Shown here: positions 5,037 through 48,639 of the stretch, in pieces | Layout: every line of letters starts with the position of its first letter | Numbering within the stretch: position 1 is the first letter of the stretch | IMG/VR virus record: IMGVR_UViG_3300030202_001027 | Span: 1 to 48,639 of that record | Strand: one strand, 5' to 3' | Length of the DNA stretch: 48,639 nucleotides | Origin: a virus | Made by a program: the position numbers and the translations under genes | Notes under the pieces: generated by a model | Told to the model about the DNA's origin: nothing | What the model saw: only the letters and a program-made list of their open reading frames with translations | Database searches by the model: none

Positions 5037-5762
5037 TTAGGGAAGGTTTTGATGCAGCTCGACGACACGCTCTTTATCGCATAGCCAGAAGACTAAAAGA
5101 TACCTATCGCCTTTGCTAACTGGCAGGCCTCTGTGTGAGTGGGTGAAGGATGGGAAGATTAAACCATGGCCGTTGGGCAAAGGCTTGAGCTTGCCATGGT
5201 TATGGAACTCAGTTCCGCCGCCTATATATGATCCCGTGTTGAGTGGTACAACCACACTAATATCTGCTGAGTCATCATGGTGCCAATGACCCATGCCTGT
5301 CTCCCCCAGATTGTAGTTAGCAATCTGTATCGTTGCAGGATCGCCACAGCTGCGTTGCCACAATGCCATGATGATGGGATTGATCACAGTACGCACCACA
5401 AACCACATGTTTGTATAAAGATCCGCACATTTCTCCCGTAGTACAATCTCTGGGATCTGTCTGAGCAGGTCTTCATCTTGATTAGATTCAAACCCAAACT
5501 CTTTCTTCATATGCTCAATCTCTTGGCACATCATCTTGCACCAGCTTCTTCTGAACAAAGGAACCGTGTACACATCTGGGAATGGGTTCTTAACCATCTT
5601 TTGAATTGGCGTGCGCTCCATCCTATCCATGCCTCGTTGCGCCGTGTACTTTGTGATTGCAGGCAAAGAGTCTTGAACCGCTTGGTAGGTGTTCTGGTTG
5701 ATCATCCAATGCGATTGCATGGACAACATGTAATTCTTCAATTGGTACATAAGTTTGCACAT
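5037..5762 (-). CDS. 2-oxoglutarate/Fe(II)-dependent oxygenase
   Basis: A 241-aa cytoplasmic enzyme of the prolyl-4-hydroxylase/PKHD-like 2OG-Fe(II) family. The double-stranded beta-helix iron ligands are visible: H161-x-D163 in GHWHHDDSADISVVVPLN, and a distal His in THSHRG (H210). R220 in KGDRYLLVFWL, ten residues on, would bind 2-oxoglutarate. The substrate cannot be told; phage homologues are thought to modify protein or nucleobase. The N-terminal 60 residues are outside the core. The start is uncertain: a TATAAT box lies almost on ATG 5762, so translation may begin at Met5 or Met12. It diverges from the RHH-like gene. Confidence 0.8.
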   Translation of the reverse strand: MCKLMYQLKNYMLSMQSHWMINQNTYQAVQDSLPAITKYTAQRGMDRMERTPIQKMVKNPFPDVYTVPLFRRSWCKMMCQEIEHMKKEFGFESNQDEDLLRQIPEIVLREKCADLYTNMWFVVRTVINPIIMALWQRSCGDPATIQIANYNLGETGMGHWHHDDSADISVVVPLNTGSYIGGGTEFHNHGKLKPLPNGHGLIFPSFTHSHRGLPVSKGDRYLLVFWLCDKERVVELHQNLP

Positions 5763-36972: not shown

Positions 36973-39636
36973 CTACCGTACTAGCCATTCTTCAACAGTG
37001 TCTGAAATGTCTTTCATTTTTATCCAACGGTCCCCTGTAGGCTGGCCTTTTCTCATTCTTAATTTACCCATCAAACCTATAGTATCCCATTCTTTTCTAG
37101 ACTCTCTGGTTTCATAAGATTTAGAAGGATCATAATCAGGGTTTAATTTTCTTCGTTTAAGTTTAGTAGTACCATCTTCTTCTGTATCTTTAACTACAGC
37201 TTTAGTTTTAATGATCCTGCCTTCACTGTCTTTAACATCTTCAGAAGGAGGAGTAACATCACTTGGAATTTTATCTGTTTCATACCAAATTTTGTCTTCC
37301 TTTGCGATGTTTGTTGCATCATAAGTAATTTCTGTCCATTCAGTACTTGTGTGTTCTTCCCAAATAAAAGAACCAAAATCGTCTTTAAGGTATTTTTGTT
37401 TATATTGCTCTGTATCACCATCACCTATTACAGCAGGAGCGGCAGAAACAATACCAAGGATGGACGATTTCTCATCATCACTAGTCGCTTTACGAATCAT
37501 GTTGCCATCAAGAACTACTGAATAACCTCTACGATCTTCACTATCTGAGTTGCCATCTTTCCACTCAAAGTATTCTGCGTAGTCAGCACCGCCTCCTGTC
37601 CATGAACCATCACAAAAAGCATTACCATCGCCTCTAAGCAAATACTCATTATCGGCAGCAGAAGCAACATTTGATCTTCCAACAAAATGATAATAAGCTG
37701 TACTTGCTGCTCTGTCTGCGTCTGCTCCATAAAGCCAATTATTAAAACTTCCGCTAGTATTATAAGACATAATACCGTAGCGACCTGCTGTACTTGATTT
37801 ACGGTAGATGTCCCAAGAATCTCCTACATCTCCGACTCCATTTCCTACAATAAATGCTCCATTATCATTAATACGAGCTATCTCAACTACTGTTTGAGTA
37901 GCTCCTGCACTTACAGAAGCAGCGTTATACCAACGATGCGTACCTTCACCTTGTAAATAACTAGTTCCTAATCCAGTAGCGGTGGCAACGTAATTTGATC
38001 CGTTCCAAACCGTATTTTGAGACAAATAAAAACCACCTGATCCAGTGACGTTAGCCCATAAATAAGCAGCTCCTCCAAGATCAAGTGCGCGATAGTTAGC
38101 ATCCCAAGCAGCTGATCCAATAGCATTTATTGCAACATTACCAGAATTATTAATACGAACCCTTTCTACTTCATCATAACCGCCATCTGGAGTTGTCCAA
38201 AAAGATAAACGTCCCGGCATATCATTGTCACCGGGAGTTCCATCTACAAAAGATTTAATTGCAGCAGTAGCTCTCATGCGTTCACCGCCATCAGCACCTG
38301 TAAACGCTACTATTCCAGTTATATCTCCACTTTGGACAATAGTGTCTGAATTAACTGCTGTACCTCTGCTTTTACCTATACTTAAAATAGGACCAGCAGT
38401 ATCATTAGAGTTTCTAAACATTCCAATTGAAGAAGTATTTACGTCAGTACCTTCAACTTGGAGAGTAGGAACAATTCCTCCATAAAGTGTATCAGCAGAA
38501 GTAGCTGCTATTCCTCCAATCAAAACTCTACCCGTTGAATCTACTCTCATTGCTGGAGCTGATGTAGAACCTCCTGTTCTTCTATCAAAAACCAAATCTC
38601 CTAGATAAGTGCCTTTCCATTCATTAGCAATAAGCCATCTTGAAGCCCCAGTGGTTCTGGTTTCAAGTGCAATACCTGAGTAAGTTGCTGAGTTGGATTC
38701 GTTATGCGCTCCGATAAGAATGTTAGAATTAGCTGTAGTTACGCCAACTGTTCCGTCAGTCGGTAAAGTTCCTGTTGCGCTAGTGTTAGTTTGGAAAGTT
38801 AAAGTAGGAGCCGCAACGCCAACTCCTACATTGCCATCCCCACGAACTTTAAAATACGTTGAAGCATTTGCATGATCACGAACACTGAAGGATTCATCAG
38901 CAGAAGTGCTGCCAGCACGAACCACTAAGCCATAGTTCCTCCCATCCGTAGCTTCGTTGTTACGAACAAATAAAGCATAAGCATCATCAGCCACACCGTC
39001 TGCGGGATCAATTACAACTTGCCCGGCTAATGTAGACTTTAAGTCTTCATCAATGCTAATTGCTGGAGTAGTTCCTACTGTAGAGCCTTTACCTATAATT
39101 AAATCATCGGCTGAATCATCTAAACCAATGTAGAAATCCTGTGCGTTTCCATCGAATATAATCGCCGTGTCCTCTGCCGCAGCATTGCCAATTCTGAAAT
39201 TAGTACCTACACTTAAATTATCAAACGCCTCAACAACAGCCGCTCCAGCACCTGCGCCATCAAGATAGACTGCCTTCACAAAACCATTGGCTATCGTTAC
39301 TTCTGCGCCAGAACCTTGTTTAATGATGATGTTTTGTGAGCCTGAAGTTGCGTTTTCGATGATGTGAACGCGAGACAATGTGTTTGGCCCAATTGTGATC
39401 GTACAGGCAGAATCAAGAGTTCCAGTGTACTTGATGTACATAGCTCTGCCGGGGTCAGTTGAGCCATCAGCTACTGTCGTTGCATGGGTATCAGCGTTGG
39501 TGGTTATGCCCTCCGTACCATACCCCAGCGCTTCACCGATCAGCTCTAAATTTGTGTTTGTCTCAGTTCCCCACGTTCCACTGGATTCTCCAGTGCCAAT
39601 CTCCTTGAGGCGTAGGTCATTAACGTACGTTGCCAT
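36973..39636 (-). CDS. Tail fibre/spike with C-terminal Peptidase_G2 autocleavage domain
   Basis: An 887-aa tail protein. The N-terminus (TYVNDLRLKEIGTGESSGTW, residues 3-22) is a common attachment motif. The middle is a long beta-rich shaft with many Asn/Asp/Gly turns (NVGVGVAAP, NVAINAIGS repeats). The C-terminal part matches Peptidase_G2: GGGADYAEYFEWKDGN, SVVLDGNMIRKATSDDEKSS and ILGIVSAAP. In that family the domain works as an intramolecular chaperone that folds the trimer and then cuts itself off. Here about 130 mostly charged residues follow the domain, an unusual tail. It has its own GACACG-type promoter. Confidence 0.75.
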   Translation of the reverse strand: MATYVNDLRLKEIGTGESSGTWGTETNTNLELIGEALGYGTEGITTNADTHATTVADGSTDPGRAMYIKYTGTLDSACTITIGPNTLSRVHIIENATSGSQNIIIKQGSGAEVTIANGFVKAVYLDGAGAGAAVVEAFDNLSVGTNFRIGNAAAEDTAIIFDGNAQDFYIGLDDSADDLIIGKGSTVGTTPAISIDEDLKSTLAGQVVIDPADGVADDAYALFVRNNEATDGRNYGLVVRAGSTSADESFSVRDHANASTYFKVRGDGNVGVGVAAPTLTFQTNTSATGTLPTDGTVGVTTANSNILIGAHNESNSATYSGIALETRTTGASRWLIANEWKGTYLGDLVFDRRTGGSTSAPAMRVDSTGRVLIGGIAATSADTLYGGIVPTLQVEGTDVNTSSIGMFRNSNDTAGPILSIGKSRGTAVNSDTIVQSGDITGIVAFTGADGGERMRATAAIKSFVDGTPGDNDMPGRLSFWTTPDGGYDEVERVRINNSGNVAINAIGSAAWDANYRALDLGGAAYLWANVTGSGGFYLSQNTVWNGSNYVATATGLGTSYLQGEGTHRWYNAASVSAGATQTVVEIARINDNGAFIVGNGVGDVGDSWDIYRKSSTAGRYGIMSYNTSGSFNNWLYGADADRAASTAYYHFVGRSNVASAADNEYLLRGDGNAFCDGSWTGGGADYAEYFEWKDGNSDSEDRRGYSVVLDGNMIRKATSDDEKSSILGIVSAAPAVIGDGDTEQYKQKYLKDDFGSFIWEEHTSTEWTEITYDATNIAKEDKIWYETDKIPSDVTPPSEDVKDSEGRIIKTKAVVKDTEEDGTTKLKRRKLNPDYDPSKSYETRESRKEWDTIGLMGKLRMRKGQPTGDRWIKMKDISDTVEEWLVR

Positions 39637-40442: not shown

Positions 40443-41249
40443 TTAAGTTAAGTTTGAACCCAAACCCTGAAACTTACGATTAAGGATCTTGTCAACTTTG
40501 TTAGGCGTAAAGTTTTCATATCCAGCATGAGTGTTCGCAATTTGCTTGGCAGTTCTCCTAACCCCAAGTCCGCGTTTTTTGCATTGATAAATTGTCCTGA
40601 TCACCGCCTGCTCTTCAGGAACCTCGACTAGCTTCTTGCGAGTCTTCATCCGGTTGCCATGCTTGAGCTTTTCTTCCTCAAAGCAATAACCAAACGGCGC
40701 CGACCCACCAATCGAATATCCACGTTGCGCCCAAGAGATTTTGCCCTCAGCAAACTTCTTCTTAGTGTTCTCGAACTCCATCTCAGCGACGGCAGATAAC
40801 ACCATCAGCATGATCTGGTTAACCAAGGCGTTCATGTCGTACTTAGAGTTTAACCCCTTGGCGGCAATCTCCTTGGGGTACACGATTGGCATGTCGCCAA
40901 ACTGCTCACACAGATAGAAGGTCACGCCGCATGATTCAAAGTGTGGGATCGTCGCCATCAAATCTTTGCAGCTTCTAGACAGTCGGTCCATTCTGGTTGA
41001 CACAATAATGTCGTACTCGTCCATCACATCTGTCATGGCTCGACATTGTTCGCGCTCCAAAATCGGAACAGTGCCTGAGACACCAGAGTCCGCAAACCAG
41101 TCAGTCACTTCTTTGTTGAATTTCTCTTTGACAAACTCAGAGATCAATTCCTTCTGAGTGTCAATTGAGATTCCGTTCTCAGACTGCTCGATGGTAGACA
41201 CGCGACAGTAGCCATAGATGTTGCGGATCTGTTTTTTAGGATTGCTCAT
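40443..41249 (-). CDS. Serine recombinase (resolvase/invertase family)
   Basis: A 268-aa site-specific recombinase. Catalytic Ser18 lies in YGYCRVSTIEQ; DSGVSGT (54-60) and RMDRLSRS (86-93) supply the active-site Asp/Ser and Arg residues. A helix E region (about 135-165) is followed by the recombinase-type domain (GYSIGGSAPFGYCF, PEEQAVIRTIY) and a helix-turn-helix-like end (GVRRTAKQIANTH). It is larger than a minimal resolvase and smaller than a large serine integrase. Roles may be integration, dimer resolution or inversion of nearby tail genes. It overlaps the 77-aa gene by four bases (ATGA). No attachment site could be defined. Confidence 0.85.
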   Translation of the reverse strand: MSNPKKQIRNIYGYCRVSTIEQSENGISIDTQKELISEFVKEKFNKEVTDWFADSGVSGTVPILEREQCRAMTDVMDEYDIIVSTRMDRLSRSCKDLMATIPHFESCGVTFYLCEQFGDMPIVYPKEIAAKGLNSKYDMNALVNQIMLMVLSAVAEMEFENTKKKFAEGKISWAQRGYSIGGSAPFGYCFEEEKLKHGNRMKTRKKLVEVPEEQAVIRTIYQCKKRGLGVRRTAKQIANTHAGYENFTPNKVDKILNRKFQGLGSNLT

Positions 41250-41810: not shown

Positions 41811-42059
41811 ATGAAGCTACCTAACAAGATTACTCAAGGTTGGCTCGACAGCAAAGGCTACGAAGCTGGAATGATGTATCGCAACCATGGCGGTTGGCGT
41901 CTTGTTATTCTGCTCAAGCGCGGGCGCAAGTGGGCCAGCTTGGTAGAGCAGGGACCAATCGGCGGAATCAACAAACGGTTCAAGGTCAAGATGTCTGAGC
42001 TAGACAATAACTTTCAGCCGCTCAAGATTGTGCGCGGCAAAACAAGGAGGGCGGCATGA
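41811..42059 (+). CDS. Small basic hypothetical protein, 82 aa
   Basis: Not recognised. A longer frame starts upstream, but ATG 41811 lies eight bases after CGGAG and past the promoter. It reads MKLPNKITQGWLDSKGYEAG, then WRLVILLKRGRKWASLVEQG, and is basic (KTRRAA end): beta-rich and possibly nucleic-acid binding. It is the first gene of the accessory cassette and overlaps the 571-aa gene by four bases (ATGA), so the two are coupled. Confidence 0.6.
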   Translation: MKLPNKITQGWLDSKGYEAGMMYRNHGGWRLVILLKRGRKWASLVEQGPIGGINKRFKVKMSELDNNFQPLKIVRGKTRRAA

Positions 42060-43771
42060 AGGGATATAAATCACTGGAGACTACAAGAGATTTTGTGAAG
42101 GATCAGGCGAAACATTTGAGGAAGGCGTTAAAGGTATTTAGAAAGACTTGCAGCAAGCAAACTTTTCAAACCTGCGTTTCTCCGACTTTTCTTAAACTTT
42201 CAAGCATGGACGACTTAACTTGGGAATCTTACATTGCTTGCGAAAATCAAATCTCAAGAACAATGGGCAACCACTTGGGTGCAAACTACATGTACTCAAC
42301 AATGATGTTACATTCGGTGGACTTGAACAGCGAATGTTTAAGCAATTTTGACGGGCAACAGGTTTGGAAAGGCTCTGCTCCTTTTCTTAGAAATGCTTTG
42401 CATACCGCGATTTGGGATCGTGAAGAAATAGGAATTAATGACCCCAGCAAATATATGAAAGCCGACGGCAAGGAAGCTGTCAGCATGAAAGCACGTTTTG
42501 GGAATGGCATGGATGAATCTGCAAAAGAAAACTTGCTGAAAATAATTGAAATAGCCGAGTCGCAATGCTCGCTGTCGAAAATGATAAATGGAATAGAACC
42601 TGCATCGAGCACTTTGACAGGCGAGTCTCGCGTTTACATGCCGCTTCAATATGAAAGCTCAGAAAAAACCCAAGAAATCCTTCGATGCATTGAAGGCAAT
42701 TTTGACAGGAGGTCTTTGGATCAATATTTTTACACAACTGATCGAGTCGTCATCTATCCAGAGTCTGTTGACTTGTTAACAAGCATTTTTGAAGCCGATT
42801 ATCATCTTGACGGTTTTGAGCTAGACACTTCTTTAAAAGATTTTATTTTAATGATGCCAGAAGGGTTTGAGATTAATGGAATAGAAGTTCCTTCTATTCA
42901 GGTTTCAATAAGCTCTAGATATCAAAGAAACATCTCGCTGTATTCTTACGTCAGGGACGCTTTGGAAAAAAGGTGCAGAGACTTTGGCGCAGGTGAACTT
43001 TATCACAGTGTTATTGAACAGTATAAAATCAAACAGGTCAGCGCTAAAAATGTTTTTGAAATTGCAAATAAATATATTGGCATTCATGGGACTAGCTTAG
43101 ATAAATGGACACAAGAATCGATTGCAAAGTTTGAGGATGAAATCGAAGAAACGGGACAAAGTTTTGATGAAGCCTTAGAGGCGATAAATTTGCGTGAAAA
43201 CTTTGAGACTGAAATAGTGCTGAAAGGTGGAGGCGCTTACGCTAACTTGGGGTTGGGCGCTTTCTTCAATGCTGTCAACGCTGACAAAGATCCTGAGTCC
43301 GAAAAACAATTTTTGGAAAACAATTATTCAAACGACGGACACCAAAACCAAGAGGCGGCAGATAGGCTTGCTGACATTTGCAAACTGATCTGCTCAGTCT
43401 TGGTGTACTGCCAAGCTCTAGGAGATGAGGTGCTGCACAAGGGCGTACCGTTCAAGAAGGACAATGTCATCAAGCTGTCAAAGAACGCTAACAAGAAGAA
43501 AGGTACAACCTCGATGACCCTGCGAGGTCCGAAAGGATTCTCGTCGAAGAGGGCGCAAAGCCATTACCGCAAGTGGCACTTCAGGACGCTAAAGGATGAG
43601 CGCTTCTACCAAAGTGATGAGTGGAAGGACAAGCCAAGGGGTAGCCGCGTGGTGTTCGTTAGGGACTCCGTAGTTAATCGAGACGTTAGCCCGCATGTCC
43701 TGACTGACGGCACAAACGTGGAGGACAAGGTTATGACTGCTGAAATGTCCAAGGAGGCAAACAATGGGTAA
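42056..43771 (+). CDS. 571-aa accessory protein, C-terminus like the AcrVA2 superfamily
   Basis: Not assigned with certainty. The C-terminal ~135 residues follow an order I recall from the anti-CRISPR AcrVA2 and its phage relatives: a helix ICKLICSVLVYCQA (441-454), then LHKGVPF (460-466), a basic linker, HYRKWHFRTL (503-512) and PRGSRVVFVRDSVVN (527-541). LKDFILMMPEGFEINGIEV (260-278) may match its N-terminal beta part. The first ~440 residues are otherwise unknown and mostly helical. No membrane segment. Base composition becomes GC-richer after about 43380, as if two parts were joined. It is the main gene of a plus-strand cassette with a regulated promoter inside minus-strand DNA, typical of a defence or anti-defence island. 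An alternative is a generic conserved phage protein of this superfamily. Confidence 0.55.
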   Translation: MKGYKSLETTRDFVKDQAKHLRKALKVFRKTCSKQTFQTCVSPTFLKLSSMDDLTWESYIACENQISRTMGNHLGANYMYSTMMLHSVDLNSECLSNFDGQQVWKGSAPFLRNALHTAIWDREEIGINDPSKYMKADGKEAVSMKARFGNGMDESAKENLLKIIEIAESQCSLSKMINGIEPASSTLTGESRVYMPLQYESSEKTQEILRCIEGNFDRRSLDQYFYTTDRVVIYPESVDLLTSIFEADYHLDGFELDTSLKDFILMMPEGFEINGIEVPSIQVSISSRYQRNISLYSYVRDALEKRCRDFGAGELYHSVIEQYKIKQVSAKNVFEIANKYIGIHGTSLDKWTQESIAKFEDEIEETGQSFDEALEAINLRENFETEIVLKGGGAYANLGLGAFFNAVNADKDPESEKQFLENNYSNDGHQNQEAADRLADICKLICSVLVYCQALGDEVLHKGVPFKKDNVIKLSKNANKKKGTTSMTLRGPKGFSSKRAQSHYRKWHFRTLKDERFYQSDEWKDKPRGSRVVFVRDSVVNRDVSPHVLTDGTNVEDKVMTAEMSKEANNG

Positions 43772-44134: not shown

Positions 44135-44917
44135 TCACATCCCACCGCCAATTCTTTGCATTCTAGGACCAGAAGGTTTGTAATCTGGGTGTTGCTGGCC
44201 TTGCAGGAAGACGTTACCAGTCGCCTTGTCAACCAACTGATAGTAGCGGTTACCGTCATCTCCCATAATGTTTTCTACCTGCTGGAAAGGCAGGCTCTCA
44301 ATAACTTCTCGATTAACACCCGCCGCAATAGAAGTAGCATCAGGGCGCTGGATGCTTTGGCCAAATCCGTAAGAATCCATGTCCATTCCTGAACTTATTG
44401 GACCAGCAGTCTCAAGATACTGTTGCCGTGAGAATCGTTCCATGGGAGTCATCTGGCTGAAGCCAGTTGCGCCACGGCCTTGGCCTCCCCTAAAAAGTCC
44501 CAAGCCTAGGATGCCTCCTCTACCTGCGCCTTGGCCTCGTCGTCGGCCCATGAGTCCAAAGCCAAGCGGTCCTCCTCTGCCTCTGCCCTGTCCTCCAGCA
44601 AATTGTCCTGCCATGGCCATTGGGTTTGTCATGTTGGCAAGATTGTCTTGCATGTCGGTCATACGGTTAATAGGACGAGCTATGCGATTTAAAAAATTAC
44701 CTATACGTCTTCCGCCGGGGAGGCGTTGTCCAAACTGACCTAACCTTGTAAATCCTCTGGTCATTAAGTTTTGCATTCTAGGACCAGCAAACGGTATAGA
44801 TCCGATCCCGGTTCTGTTGGCTAACATTCTGCCAAACATTTGTGGTGCTTGGCCGTAGATAGGCCCACGGTATCCGGGTCTGTAAGGTACTGGAGCTTGT
44901 CTAAATCGTGTAGCCAT
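44135..44917 (-). CDS. Gly/Arg-rich protein, paralogue of the ART protein C-terminus, 260 aa
   Basis: Residues 9-90 (VPYRPGYRGPIYGQAPQMFG, RMLANRTGIGSIPF, GRRIGNFLNRIARPINRMTD) match residues 538-650 of the 742-aa protein just upstream, so the region is duplicated. The middle is RGG/Gly-rich (QGRGRGGPLGFGLMGRRR); the C-terminal part holds NIMGDDGNRYYQLVDKATGN and ends SGPRMQRIGGGM. No catalytic residues. It follows the ART gene by three bases. Probably a virion component that shares a packaging or docking module with the ART protein; inferred. Confidence 0.6.
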   Translation of the reverse strand: MATRFRQAPVPYRPGYRGPIYGQAPQMFGRMLANRTGIGSIPFAGPRMQNLMTRGFTRLGQFGQRLPGGRRIGNFLNRIARPINRMTDMQDNLANMTNPMAMAGQFAGGQGRGRGGPLGFGLMGRRRGQGAGRGGILGLGLFRGGQGRGATGFSQMTPMERFSRQQYLETAGPISSGMDMDSYGFGQSIQRPDATSIAAGVNREVIESLPFQQVENIMGDDGNRYYQLVDKATGNVFLQGQQHPDYKPSGPRMQRIGGGM

Positions 44918-44920
44918 ATC

Positions 44921-47149
44921 TTATCCTAACGCAGAATCATAAGGATTTTCAAAAATATCAAAATCACCGCTTTCGATTGTGCCTGTATAGTTCGGTACGT
45001 TTCTAGTCGAGGAATCTTGTCTACCTGTTACAACGTCTTCACCAATATTCGGGACGTAACTTGAAGCAAAGGCACCACTACCTAACATGCTGGGTGCGCC
45101 TCCATATTGTTGCATTGCAGCCTGCCTTGGAGTTCCTCGACCACCTAACAAACCAAATCCTAGCAGGCCTCCTTTGCCTCTGAGGCCAAGCATACCTTTG
45201 CCGCCTTGTTGGCTTCCACCACTAAACAATCTGCCTATACCACTGGTCATTACGTTCTGCGGGTTCATTCGATCTTGGAACGCAGTGACTCTGTTAACTT
45301 GTGTTGCTGCGCGATTCAAGGCATTGCCTAAACGTCCAGCTCCGGGTAAAAACTGAGCTACTCTACCCAAGCCCCGAAAGCCTCTGGAGAATAAGTTGGT
45401 TGCAGGTCTTCCAATAAAAGGCAATGCACCTATCCCAGTCCTGTTAGCAAACATTCTGCCAAACATCTGAGGTGCTTGACCGTAATTAAAACTAGGATCT
45501 ATAGGTCCACGATATCCGCGCCTATAAGGAACAGGTACGCCGCCAAATCGCATGTTTTGCACTTCCACTGGTCCGCCTCCTGCTTTTGATATGTTAGCAG
45601 AATCCCTGTCCTTTGGGTCTCCTTTTGCGTATTTAGATCGGATGTTCTTAGGGTCTAAAATTAAAAACTGATTACCGCGCTCTCCTCTGGCTTTTGCTTC
45701 GGACGGCATATCAAATGTTGTGCCTCTAATTTCTACAGAGTCGTAACCCTGCTCTATTAATTTTTGTCTGGCTTCTTCAGGCACAAACCCTTCTTGGTAA
45801 AACTTTTTAGCCTTTTCTGGATCTAACCCTATATGAATCATAAACTGCTCAAATGGATCAGAATGCTTTCTGGCCCTATCTGCTTGTTCATACTTCAACA
45901 AAATATTTTTGTATTCATCCGTTAAGCTGCCGTCCGCATTTTTCATCAGCTTTGGATTAAAGTTATTGGCTGCATCTCTTGCTTTCTGGAACGCCTCATC
46001 TATGCTTTTGTCAAACGTGAACACCAAGGGGTTTTCTCTTCTGGTGTAAACTGGCAAGACGTTTGGCGAACCCACGCCTTCTCTTGATGTAGCAAACCTA
46101 CTGGCCATTTCTGGAGAGTCGGAAAACCAAGTTCCTATGCCAGCTGTTGGGTGTCGCAATCTCCCAGTATCTGTCAGTGTTTGGTATCCGCTTGGGCCTC
46201 CGGGGACAAATTCATCTATACCCTTACCTTCTGGACCTGCGTCAACTGTGCCATGGTACATGGTTGTATCAACGTCCAGCCCCATGTTTTTAAGTGCTTG
46301 AACCTGTGCCGGCGGAATTTTTCCAGCCGCTTTTAACACCTTAATAATTCCACCAACGCCGGGAATAGCACCAACTATTTGCAAGGCAGAAGAGCCATAA
46401 TTGCCTTGCAAGATATTTTCTACCAAGCTCAATCCTCTAGGACCAGACAGCATCTCTTCAACTGACATGTCTCCAGAAGGAAACTCAGGATAGTTACCAG
46501 TTAAATCGGCACCCCCATATGGATCAGCAAATGCACCCGCTAGGTTAGCAGCTTGGGCAGGAGTTAGAGACGGACCTGTACGGCCCATCATCTCTGAAAC
46601 AGAACCACCAAGGCTGTAGCCAAAGATGTCCTGACTGTCTACGGAGCCGCCTTTGTTAAAAAAATTGTATTCTTCTTCGTAAGGAGTGCCTTGATGGAGC
46701 TGATAAGCATATAGCTTAAATTCTTTGTCAGAAATTAAACCCCTTTGCCTTTGCAAAATCAATTCGTCCATTTTACGAATTAACTCTTTTATTTTTTCTT
46801 TTTCTCTAACAAATGCAGACGGGTCAGGAAGATATTTCTCCTCCATATCTCTATCTGATACAACCCCTTTTAAAGCAGATAAATCTAATTGTCTTCGTAT
46901 CTCAGGAGGGTAAGCGCCCATCTTGCCTGCGCCCATCTTGCCTGCTCGATTCGTTGTCAAGCCTAGCTCTCTAGCCGCTTCCATTATTTGCATGTTTCGA
47001 TCACTACGCTTTCTAGCGTCACTAACCAGTGGATCGCCCTCTTGGGAAGCAGAAAAAATTATTTTTCGTTCGGTTAAATTGCCTTCAGGGTCAAACGCCT
47101 CGATGGTCATATGGTCCTGATCAAAGATGTCTATGTCTTCAGTAGCCAC
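44921..47149 (-). CDS. Polyvalent virion protein with ADP-ribosyltransferase-like domain
   Basis: A 742-aa multi-domain protein, GTG start. Residues 1-170 are helical. About 260-280 is a short Gly-rich hydrophobic stretch. Residues 297-505 look like an ART domain of phage polyvalent proteins: TTMYHGTVD (296-304), GIGTWFSDSPEMASRFA (337-353), a strand NVLPVYTRRENPLVFTFD, then YDSVEIRG (469-476) and NQFLILDPKNIRSKYA (493-508). Glu473 could be the catalytic Glu; the usual triad needs a structural check. Residues 538-742 are the Gly/Arg module duplicated in the next gene. Such ARTs are often injected to modify host proteins. The stop/start junctions (TAGTG) tie it to the upstream gene. Confidence 0.65.
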   Translation of the reverse strand: MATEDIDIFDQDHMTIEAFDPEGNLTERKIIFSASQEGDPLVSDARKRSDRNMQIMEAARELGLTTNRAGKMGAGKMGAYPPEIRRQLDLSALKGVVSDRDMEEKYLPDPSAFVREKEKIKELIRKMDELILQRQRGLISDKEFKLYAYQLHQGTPYEEEYNFFNKGGSVDSQDIFGYSLGGSVSEMMGRTGPSLTPAQAANLAGAFADPYGGADLTGNYPEFPSGDMSVEEMLSGPRGLSLVENILQGNYGSSALQIVGAIPGVGGIIKVLKAAGKIPPAQVQALKNMGLDVDTTMYHGTVDAGPEGKGIDEFVPGGPSGYQTLTDTGRLRHPTAGIGTWFSDSPEMASRFATSREGVGSPNVLPVYTRRENPLVFTFDKSIDEAFQKARDAANNFNPKLMKNADGSLTDEYKNILLKYEQADRARKHSDPFEQFMIHIGLDPEKAKKFYQEGFVPEEARQKLIEQGYDSVEIRGTTFDMPSEAKARGERGNQFLILDPKNIRSKYAKGDPKDRDSANISKAGGGPVEVQNMRFGGVPVPYRRGYRGPIDPSFNYGQAPQMFGRMFANRTGIGALPFIGRPATNLFSRGFRGLGRVAQFLPGAGRLGNALNRAATQVNRVTAFQDRMNPQNVMTSGIGRLFSGGSQQGGKGMLGLRGKGGLLGFGLLGGRGTPRQAAMQQYGGAPSMLGSGAFASSYVPNIGEDVVTGRQDSSTRNVPNYTGTIESGDFDIFENPYDSALG

Positions 47150-48639
47150 TAAATTGTTTCCATTGCACTAATCACAGCTTCTCTTTCAGGCTCACCTAAA
47201 ATCTGATCATAAATAAACTTACCGCCCTGCACAGCAGCTGGAAGCAAGTTCAGTCCACGCTCATCGTATACGTTTTCTGGGTCAAGCGCATAGTCAACCA
47301 CTGGTGCAGCTACGTCAATCACTGGCTCCAGCATAGATACAATACCCTTCTTAAATTCATCACTGGCCTGACGCGCTAACGCAGAGCGTGGCTCATAGTT
47401 TAACCCAGACGCTACGTCTTCCCTTGCCTGCTTGACGTTAGCCGCCAGAGCAGCAACTGCTTCTGGGTTGTTGTTTAAAACTTCATAAACCCGCTGCGGC
47501 AATTGTTCTTTGTACTGCATCAATCCAGCTATACCGCCAGCGACTGGTGCAATTAATCCGCTGATAATGTCTAGCGCTGCCTCACCAGAAGCTACGTCTG
47601 CCTTCATGCTGACCTCAGAAGCCATTAACTCTGGACTTAGCGCAGAGATGCCAAAGCTGGTTGCAATGGCTGTAGAAAACAACGGCAGGCTTTTCTTCTT
47701 AACAAAATCCTTGACGGACATATCCTTCTGACCCTTCATCGTTTCTCTAAGATCAATGAACGGAGAGGCGTATCCTTCTACGTTATAAATTAGCTCGCCA
47801 GCCCCATCTGGATTGTCTGGGTCATCTGGTAAAAAATTATGACCCTCTGGATTCGTGTATACAGCCTTATCGTTTTTATCAAACATGACAAAAGACCAAT
47901 TTTGCTGGCCATATTCATCAGCGTCTGGGCGCTTGTCGTAACGAATCGATGGTGACGGCGTTTGGCCAGTTATCTTCTTGAAGGCTGATGGCAGCAACAC
48001 ATCATACTGTTGCTCTAAACCTTCTTCGCCCCACCTGTCCATATGAACATCTGCTGGCGCGTAGGCAATTAGGTCATATTCGCCCTCTGATGCTTCTTTC
48101 AATATGTTTTTAGTCAACAAGTCGTTCCACGCTTTTGACTTGGTTACGAAGGGGTTTTTTCCTATTTCGCTTCTTAGAGAACCTAAGTTTTTTCCAAGAT
48201 CATTTTGGTAGCGATCTACTATGTTGAATATTTTGTATATCTCTGCTGGATTGACGCCAGCATTGAGTAGTTGACTGTTTATGTTTTCATCTACTTCTGC
48301 TGTTACATCGATTAATTTTTGATCAACACTGTTTGGATCTAAAAAGCTGCTTAAAGATTTTGTTTTTTTGTACGGCTCTATGCCAATTGGTCCCCTGCTC
48401 ATCAGCACGTTTGGCTGCTCTATCATCAATCGGTTGCGAACATAGTTTCCTATGAGGGCTGGAGACTGTCGCAACTCGTCGCTGGTTGATACCAAAGGCA
48501 TATTTAATCTAGCGCGAAGGTCTCGGTCTGCTTCTAACAGGTAATCGGTTATTTCTTTTGTTAGATCAGGATCTTTTAATATTTCTGCAACAATCTGACC
48601 TGACGTTTTTTGCATAATTTCTTTTTCACGCAACACAGT
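47149..48639 (-). CDS. Large virion-type protein, 5' end beyond window
   Basis: The frame is open at the right edge; a start at GTG 48636 is possible but the gene may be longer. About 495 residues are seen. The pattern EYDLIAYAPADVHMDRWG, LEQQYDVLLPSAFKKITG (about 190-230) is like a module of phage polyvalent proteins. A hydrophobic Ala/Gly-rich part (SGLIAPVAGGIAGLMQYKEQ) occurs about 365-385. Ends YDQILGEPEREAVISAMETI. It overlaps the ART gene by one base and would be translated with it. Likely an ejected protein; the enzyme activity is unknown. Confidence 0.6.
   Translation of the reverse strand, partial: TVLREKEIMQKTSGQIVAEILKDPDLTKEITDYLLEADRDLRARLNMPLVSTSDELRQSPALIGNYVRNRLMIEQPNVLMSRGPIGIEPYKKTKSLSSFLDPNSVDQKLIDVTAEVDENINSQLLNAGVNPAEIYKIFNIVDRYQNDLGKNLGSLRSEIGKNPFVTKSKAWNDLLTKNILKEASEGEYDLIAYAPADVHMDRWGEEGLEQQYDVLLPSAFKKITGQTPSPSIRYDKRPDADEYGQQNWSFVMFDKNDKAVYTNPEGHNFLPDDPDNPDGAGELIYNVEGYASPFIDLRETMKGQKDMSVKDFVKKKSLPLFSTAIATSFGISALSPELMASEVSMKADVASGEAALDIISGLIAPVAGGIAGLMQYKEQLPQRVYEVLNNNPEAVAALAANVKQAREDVASGLNYEPRSALARQASDEFKKGIVSMLEPVIDVAAPVVDYALDPENVYDERGLNLLPAAVQGGKFIYDQILGEPEREAVISAMETI

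What the first reader, a model, noticed from the sequence alone, without database searches (positions are those of the whole stretch)
44921..47149. Possible injected ADP-ribosyltransferase in a polyvalent protein
ART-like motifs lie between a helical N-terminus and a duplicated Gly/Arg module. Phage ARTs modify host RNA polymerase or other targets; carriage on a virion protein would let it act at infection.
Basis: partly seen in the sequence, partly recalled or inferred. Interest (0 to 1): 0.55.

Follow-up and report, generated by a model that had tools for sequence, protein, structure and literature searches.

The report
Swappable phage ADP-ribosyltransferase cassette protein
A marine short-tailed phage carries a large protein whose middle section is folded like an enzyme that tags host molecules with ADP-ribose; close relatives keep the ends of the protein but swap the middle for other toxin-like enzymes, so it looks like an interchangeable weapon that is probably, but not provably, delivered at infection.

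Summary
The 742-aa ORF at 44921-47149 (minus strand) contains an ADP-ribosyltransferase (ART) domain of the ART-PolyVal kind at about residues 285-522: Pfam PF18760 E 4.4e-6, just under its cut-off on the whole protein, just over it on the excised domain. An AlphaFold2 model (pLDDT 80, pTM 0.78) has the ART layout, with H299 in strand 1, W341 in strand 2 and Q494 at the front of strand 5. The usual tyrosine and glutamate are thus replaced, in 3 of 3 sequences of this subgroup, under purifying selection (dN/dS about 0.1, one pair). The top Foldseek match in the PDB is a pre-ejectosome protein of cyanopodophage A-4L, a structural precedent for an ART-like fold in a podovirus particle. In related viral contigs the same N-terminal, linker and C-terminal parts flank ART-PolyVal, PBECR5 nuclease, zeta-toxin or unknown domains, with an acidic 'xDIF' motif bracketing the cassettes. 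Polyvalent phage ARTs are published; the W/Q(H) active-site variant and the xDIF brackets I did not meet in the passages read, but did not search for directly. Injection, catalysis and target (RNA polymerase or other) are untested.

The parts
44921..47149 (-). 742-aa polyvalent-type protein (the finding)
   Evidence: conserved in relatives
47123..47131 (-). N-terminal xDIF motif (residues 7-9, MATEDIDIFD)
   Evidence: DIF or NIF near the N-terminus in 16 of 17 cluster proteins whose N-terminus is held
46295..46657 (-). linker/preface module (residues about 165-285), shared with relatives that carry other effectors
46622..46630 (-). second xDIF motif (residues 174-176, SQDIFGYSLGG), start of the preface module
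45584..46297 (-). ART-PolyVal-like domain (residues about 285-522)
   Evidence: PF18760; AF2 model; Foldseek/VIA
46253..46255 (-). H299, strand 1, expected NAD-binding histidine (YHGT)
46127..46129 (-). W341, strand 2, at the usual tyrosine position
45668..45670 (-). Q494, front of strand 5, at the usual glutamate position
45752..46009 (-). helical insert inside the ART domain (residues about 381-466)
   Evidence: five helices between strands 93-97 and 190-196 of the model
44924..45574 (-). basic Gly/Arg-rich C-terminal module (residues 526-742); 82% identical in L003/L004, 93% in L005 (to residue 718), 77% in L006, none of which has this ART
44951..44959 (-). third xDIF motif (residues 731-733, SGDFDIFENP)
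44135..44917 (-). next gene, 260 aa, second copy of the Gly/Arg module plus a further conserved tail
   Evidence: pI 11.5
47149..48636 (-). preceding gene in the same run (495 aa), may be cut by the contig end; no family found

Best explanation
The protein is a modular phage effector carrier. Fixed parts (an xDIF-tagged N-terminus, a preface/linker module and a basic Gly/Arg tail) hold a swappable enzyme cassette, here an ART-PolyVal-like ADP-ribosyltransferase. Most likely the protein is made late, packaged with the genome or ejection proteins in this podovirus, enters the cell with the DNA and transfers ADP-ribose from NAD+ to a host macromolecule to help takeover or counter a defence. Shown here: the domain, its predicted fold, the cassette swapping, the conserved but non-canonical residues and the gene neighbourhood. 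Inferred: packaging, injection, catalysis. Unknown: the target.
For: PF18760 match (excised domain over the cut-off). Profile-profile match to canonical H-Y-E ART-PolyVal domains (hhalign probability 98.8) and to W-H members (98.3). AF2 model pLDDT 80.3, pTM 0.78. Foldseek against the PDB: the only hit at E <= 0.001 is 9k3a_B, cyanophage A4 pre-ejectosome (3.5e-4), and 48 of the 50 rows shown are PARP catalytic domains at E 0.02-0.3. VIA: 9k3a_B and ParT Z 7.3, cholix 6.5, tankyrase 6.4. BFVD: 33 hits at E <= 1e-3, several named ART-PolyVal-like. Swapped cassettes in the same frame. Purifying selection on residues 341-525, dN/dS 0.095 in one pair. Context between replication genes and the tail-fibre/terminase block.
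Against: PF18760 is below its curated cut-off on the whole protein, and so is the closest full-frame relative L093 (22.3 bits). Y and E of the usual triad are W and Q. All VIA Z-scores are under 8, a level that the tool says may mean only a common arrangement, and 8 of the 50 rows shown are plainly unrelated by title. TM-scores to PARPs are low, about 0.3. The 9k3a_B sequence itself has no Pfam ART hit and only a marginal motif match. No proteomics or expression data. The related phages HTVC027P and 023Pt_psg01 lack the gene.
Confidence: 0.6

Rival explanations
1. The domain has the ART fold but does not do canonical ADP-ribosyl transfer: with W and Q in place of Y and E it binds NAD/ADP-ribose or nucleic acid, hydrolyses NAD, or uses another acceptor chemistry.
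For: W341 and Q494 replace Y and E. In a second sample chosen by the tryptophan motif (only L088 and L100 shared with the first), 0 of 36 readable domains have E at the third site: 26 have H and 10 have V, I or T, so the variant is a stable class.
Against: The H-Y-[EDQ] clade as defined in print allows Q at the third site (PMC7955679, passage); the histidine, the strand positions and the sequence are kept under selection.
Confidence: 0.3
2. It is an effector expressed inside the infected cell (host takeover, superinfection exclusion or competition with other phages) and never packaged.
For: No virion data; the gene sits next to replication genes as well as next to the tail-fibre block; HTVC027P and 023Pt_psg01 do without it.
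Against: A large protein with a similar domain is in the solved pre-ejectosome of cyanopodophage A-4L; one published survey places about 44% of the phage ARTs it recovered in contexts suggesting head packaging (PMC9503650, passage).
Confidence: 0.27
3. The ART likeness is a chance resemblance of a different mixed alpha/beta domain.
For: VIA Z under 8 and Foldseek E 0.02 or worse to PARPs.
Against: Sequence profile, profile-profile and fold evidence agree, and the three motifs fall on strands 1, 2 and 5.
Confidence: 0.04

Closest known systems
ART-PolyVal (Pfam PF18760), ART of phage and plasmid polyvalent proteins (Iyer et al. 2017, PMC5512222; probably the 'N4-like' family of the HY-[EDQ] clade in PMC9503650)
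   Same: Profile match, H in strand 1, predicted ART fold, phage multidomain protein with other effector domains in relatives.
   Different: Tryptophan in place of the strand-2 tyrosine, glutamine in place of E/D, and a helical insert of about 86 residues; whole-protein score just below the Pfam cut-off.
Cyanophage A-4L A4L_27 / PDB 9k3a chain B, pre-ejectosome tail protein
   Same: Top Foldseek and joint-top VIA match to the ART model; YHGT, GTYFS and INP stretches are visible in the protein.
   Different: Only a marginal sequence match around the first two motifs, no Pfam ART hit, a different protein frame.
T4 Alt
   Same: Phage ART, packaged and injected (stated in passages of PMC5512222 and PMC9503650); works-like model for early host modification.
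   Different: R-S-E clade, whereas this domain has H at the first position; not the same family.
Polymorphic/polyvalent effector exchange (e.g. jhp1044 mosaics of Helicobacter phages, PMC5512222, passage)
   Same: Exchange of effector domains in otherwise orthologous proteins.
   Different: Here fixed ends and a repeated xDIF motif at the joints.

Membership tests
ART-PolyVal (PF18760) | Score over the curated Pfam cut-off (31.2 bits, set for the whole protein) | tested here: inconclusive
   Whole protein 27.9 bits, excised domain 31.9 bits; relatives L006, L007, L016, L019, L021 over the cut-off on whole ORFs, L020 and L093 under it
ART superfamily, H-Y-[EDQ] clade | ART split beta-sheet fold | tested here: met
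   AF2 model with pLDDT 80.3 whose listed PDB matches are mostly ARTs with further ART-PolyVal-like names in BFVD; every Z is under 8, so the support is moderate and read with the sequence evidence
ART superfamily, H-Y-[EDQ] clade | Histidine in strand 1 | tested here: met
   H299 in model strand 11-20
ART superfamily, H-Y-[EDQ] clade | Tyrosine in strand 2 | tested here: not met
   W341 in model strand 59-62; W also in L093 and L002
ART superfamily, H-Y-[EDQ] clade | E, D or Q at the front edge of strand 5 | tested here: met
   Q494 in model strand 211-216
ART superfamily, H-Y-[EDQ] clade | NAD+-dependent ADP-ribosyl transfer | not testable with these tools
   no biochemistry
Polyvalent proteins (Iyer et al. 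2017) | Several effector domains in one polypeptide | tested here: inconclusive
   One recognised effector in the window protein; the relative L007 joins an ART and an unnamed domain of about 370 aa, and L022 joins that domain and an ART-like one
Polyvalent proteins (Iyer et al. 2017) | Encoded with virion genes and delivered with the DNA | tested here: inconclusive
   Near the recombinase, tail-fibre and terminase block on one side and replication genes on the other; delivery not testable
T4 Alt (R-S-E clade) | Arginine at the first catalytic position | tested here: not met
   H299

The most novel reading that the evidence does not exclude
A family of marine podovirus proteins uses a short acidic xDIF tag, repeated at the N-terminus, at module joints and near the C-terminus, as a loading or processing signal, so that any effector cassette (ART, PBECR nuclease, zeta toxin, unknown enzymes) placed between the tags is packaged and injected. 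The ART cassette used here belongs to a tryptophan class with H or Q in place of the catalytic glutamate, and therefore probably with altered chemistry.
Probability: 0.22. Interest if true: 0.72.

Novelty: new variant of a known kind. Interest (0 to 1): 0.47.

Why it matters
Polyvalent ARTs are widespread predictions; the passages I read offer no direct demonstration of one at work. A pre-ejectosome structure with a similar fold makes virion delivery testable, the xDIF-bracketed cassettes offer a candidate signal that could be deleted and scored, and the W/Q(H) class gives a clear residue-level question about ART chemistry. [quoted passage not shown]

Tried and rejected
First AF2 model, from 16 sequences (alignment A6), was poor (pLDDT 52.1, pTM 0.37) and was not used; a second alignment of 26 more diverse rows gave the model used. 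The model coordinates were not among the files in the Python box, so triad distances and the NAD pocket were not measured. phmmer of the whole protein against PDB sequences gave nothing (best E 1.7); a profile of A7 gave only weak hits (a ribosomal protein E 0.046, cholix E 0.16), a profile of A10 none of interest. PHROGs and NCBIfam gave no family for the target. tblastn in plasmids gave nothing; in 50,697 phage records only the ART part matched, 15% of the query or less.

T4 Alt-type membership was rejected (H, not R). xDIF was looked for in ORFs of 80 aa or more of HTVC027P and 023Pt_psg01: two D[IV]F[DEGNQ] matches in the first and three in the second, no protein with more than one, so it is not a general tag of that lineage. 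The 74-nt DNA repeat between this gene and the next could mediate exchange but is only 78% identical. An inverted-repeat search for a tail-fibre inversion switch beside the recombinase found only one weak 22-nt pair, 77% complementary.

Rows dropped before counts. Of the 35 places, one (L096) was no ART by eye, 8 were duplicates, L078, L087 and L103 had no strand-1 motif found, and L083, L091, L092, L094, L102 and L106 were left out of A7 by choice; 17 went in. Of the 102 places the 80 listed were read; 45 had the histidine motif upstream, 39 were non-redundant (some near-identical), 36 had a readable third motif, part of them read by eye. The second- and third-site residues of A7 were also read by eye. 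The dN/dS rests on one pair, window against L002. The xDIF counts rest on related proteins, so they are not independent; the 41 window proteins were ORFs that I picked, not every ORF; the 33 outside ORFs include duplicates and L096.

Papers: PMC5512222, PMC9503650, PMC7955679 and PMC9599517 were seen as search passages only; PMC12810830 only as passages of its reference list; Hou et al. 2025 (cyanopodophage A4) not seen, known from that reference and the PDB title. That the W/Q(H) class and the xDIF brackets are not in print is not established: the paper searches were made, none of which asked for them directly.

Full report
What was checked. The window is a 48,639-base IMG/VR virus record. 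The ORF at 44921-47149, minus strand, is 742 aa long. It lies in a run of minus-strand genes: an unknown 495-aa gene before it (47149-48636), this gene, and a 260-aa basic gene after it (44135-44917). Then follow, with one larger plus-strand gene in between (42056-43771), a resolvase-type recombinase (40443-41249; Pfam Resolvase E 3e-22), a tail fibre with a Peptidase_G2 domain, the terminase and the portal. In relatives the order is primase, RusA resolvase (and in L022 a small-terminase-like gene), the polyvalent gene, recombinase, tail fibre. TerL is 62% identical to phage 023Pt_psg01 and 57% to Pelagibacter phage HTVC027P, and the portal 54% and 52% over about three quarters of its length, so this is a relative of the HTVC023P-type podoviruses. 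The host is not certain, since Phage DSL-LC04, listed with a gammaproteobacterial host, is about as close (59%).

The ART domain. hmmscan gives one family, ART-PolyVal, E 4.4e-6, 27.9 bits, cut-off 31.2; the excised domain scores 31.9, although the cut-off is meant for whole proteins. The motifs are YHGT at 298, GTWFSD at 339 and NQFLILDP at 493. A profile of this subgroup (window, L093, L002) matches canonical members with probability 98.8 and members of a tryptophan-histidine type with 98.3. Between the window and L002 the ART part that L002 holds (residues 341-525) has dN/dS 0.095, against 0.191 for the C-terminal module and 0.157 for the next gene, so it is a maintained domain.

Structure. 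With an alignment of 26 rows the model reaches pLDDT 80.3 and pTM 0.78. H299 lies in strand 11-20 of the model, W341 in strand 59-62 and Q494 near the front of strand 211-216, which fit strands 1, 2 and 5 of the ART scheme in PMC7955679 (passages); five helices are inserted between strands 93-97 and 190-196. Against the PDB, Foldseek has one hit at E <= 0.001, chain B of 9k3a, 'Cyanophage A4 pre-ejectosome' (E 3.5e-4); of the 50 rows shown (of 226 at E <= 10) 48 are PARP catalytic domains with E from 0.02 to 0.3 and TM-scores near 0.3, and one is syntaxin 6. VIA-align gives 9k3a_B Z 7.3 over 138 residues, ParT 7.3, cholix 6.5 and tankyrases 6.4, with 8 of 50 rows plainly unrelated by title. 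No Z reaches 8, so the fold evidence is moderate by itself and is read together with the sequence evidence. In BFVD 33 matches reach E <= 0.001 and several are named ART-PolyVal-like.

The pre-ejectosome precedent. 9k3a_B matches gene A4L_27 of Anabaena phage A-4L end to end (residues 1-1717 of 1717). Its sequence near residue 1425 reads YHGT, followed by GSGTYFS and later VINPDAVSV. Pfam finds no ART there, and a profile from A7 gives only a marginal local match (E 0.019 in a database of one). So a solved internal protein complex of a podovirus holds the domain that the ART model resembles most. I did not see the paper and do not know how its authors read this region.

Cassette swapping. Relatives in viral contigs keep the ends and change the middle. 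L002 (87% identical ART) and L093 (59% over residues 4-533) carry the same ART. L006 and L007 carry other ART-PolyVal domains over the cut-off, and L005 a PBECR5 nuclease domain (1 of 12 records searched has PBECR5). L016, L019 and L021 carry ART-PolyVal over the cut-off, L020 a cut one below it, and L012 a zeta-toxin domain behind the same preface. L005, L006, L007, L008, L016, L021, L022 and L023 carry an unnamed domain of roughly 370 aa, seen by eye. L003 keeps 82% identity to the C-terminal module with no ART in its record. In L007, and by eye in L006, the C-terminal part of this gene runs on into the tail of the window's next gene as one protein. tblastn in 50,697 phage records finds nothing beyond the ART part, and HTVC027P and 023Pt_psg01 lack the gene.

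The xDIF motif. DIF followed by D, E or G occurs three times in the window protein (residues 7, 174, 731), nowhere else in the 41 window proteins that I picked (13,695 residues in all), and in 0 of 5000 shuffles of the protein at that number. In 19 proteins of the cluster it occurs 24 times in 12,891 residues, against once in 20,859 residues of 33 pattern-matched ORFs outside the cluster, duplicates included, the one match being in L096, which is not an ART. Counting DIF or NIF, 16 of the 17 cluster proteins whose N-terminus is held carry it near the start (L012 does not). It recurs at the start of preface modules (DIFDYLPS or DIFxYSLGG), and towards the C-terminus in the window, L002, L003, L022 and L023. 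In L093 a new xDIF plus YSLGG follows directly after the ART. These proteins are related, so the numbers are not independent events. A docking or loading tag and a processing site are both possible; neither is shown.

The active-site variant. In A7 (26 rows, read by eye) 15 rows have E at the third site and none of these has W at the second; the W rows are the window group (Q) and L082, L088 and L100 (H), with L075 unclear. To test the coupling I scanned viral contigs for the tryptophan motif alone. Of 80 loci read of 102 matched, 45 had the strand-1 histidine and 39 were non-redundant; of 36 readable third sites 26 are H, 10 are V, I or T, and 0 are E; L088 and L100 are in both samples. PMC7955679 describes the clade as H-Y-[EDQ] (passage) and PMC5512222 describes the polyvalent ARTs as H, Y, D (passage). 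A W with H or Q class was not mentioned in the passages I read, but I did not search for it as such.

Mechanism. Shown: a selected ART-fold domain in a constant, tagged frame between replication and late genes. Inferred: packaging and injection, by analogy with T4 Alt and the polyvalent-protein model (PMC5512222, PMC9503650, passages) and with the A-4L pre-ejectosome. Inferred with less confidence: ADP-ribosyl transfer despite W and Q. Unknown: the target. My odds: ART fold about 0.93, active transferase about 0.55, injected about 0.6.

Verdict. The kind of system is published; this is a variant of it with an unusual active site and a suggestive tag.

Noticed in passing
Viral-contig loci L112-L189, L088, L100: A class of phage ART-like domains has W in place of the strand-2 tyrosine and H (26 of 36 readable), V, I or T in place of the glutamate, E in 0 of 36. 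It could be a separate chemistry.
   Followed up: partly
L012:3436-4758: Zeta-toxin domain (PF06414 E 5.4e-8) behind the same preface module, just upstream of the Gly/Arg gene homologue.
   Followed up: no
L005:1730-3340, L006:3649-5229, L023:200-2038 and others: A conserved domain of roughly 370 aa with no Pfam match recurs as a cassette in this family; possibly a new enzyme.
   Followed up: no
window 40443-41249 and 36973-39636: Resolvase-family recombinase near a tail fibre of which only residues 1-306 match in L003/L004; a tail-fibre exchange or inversion system is possible, but no clear inverted repeats were found.
   Followed up: partly
window 5037-5762: 2OG-Fe(II) oxygenase (PF13640 E 3.1e-7) whose PHROG matches include DNA endonuclease families.
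   Followed up: no
window 42056-43771: 571-aa plus-strand gene of unknown function, opposite to its neighbours, conserved in L002 (about 70% identity, dN/dS 0.23); no family in Pfam or PHROGs.
   Followed up: no
L022:7081-7965: A second, different ART-like domain (PF18760 E 0.028, 3.6e-4 for one record, under the cut-off; a sub-cut-off Amidohydro_2 match scores better) near the end of an xDIF protein.
   Followed up: no
PDB 9k3a_B / L212:20116-25269: Pre-ejectosome protein of cyanophage A-4L with ART-like motifs not flagged by Pfam; the stretch before them looks ParB-like to me by eye (recalled, untested).
   Followed up: partly
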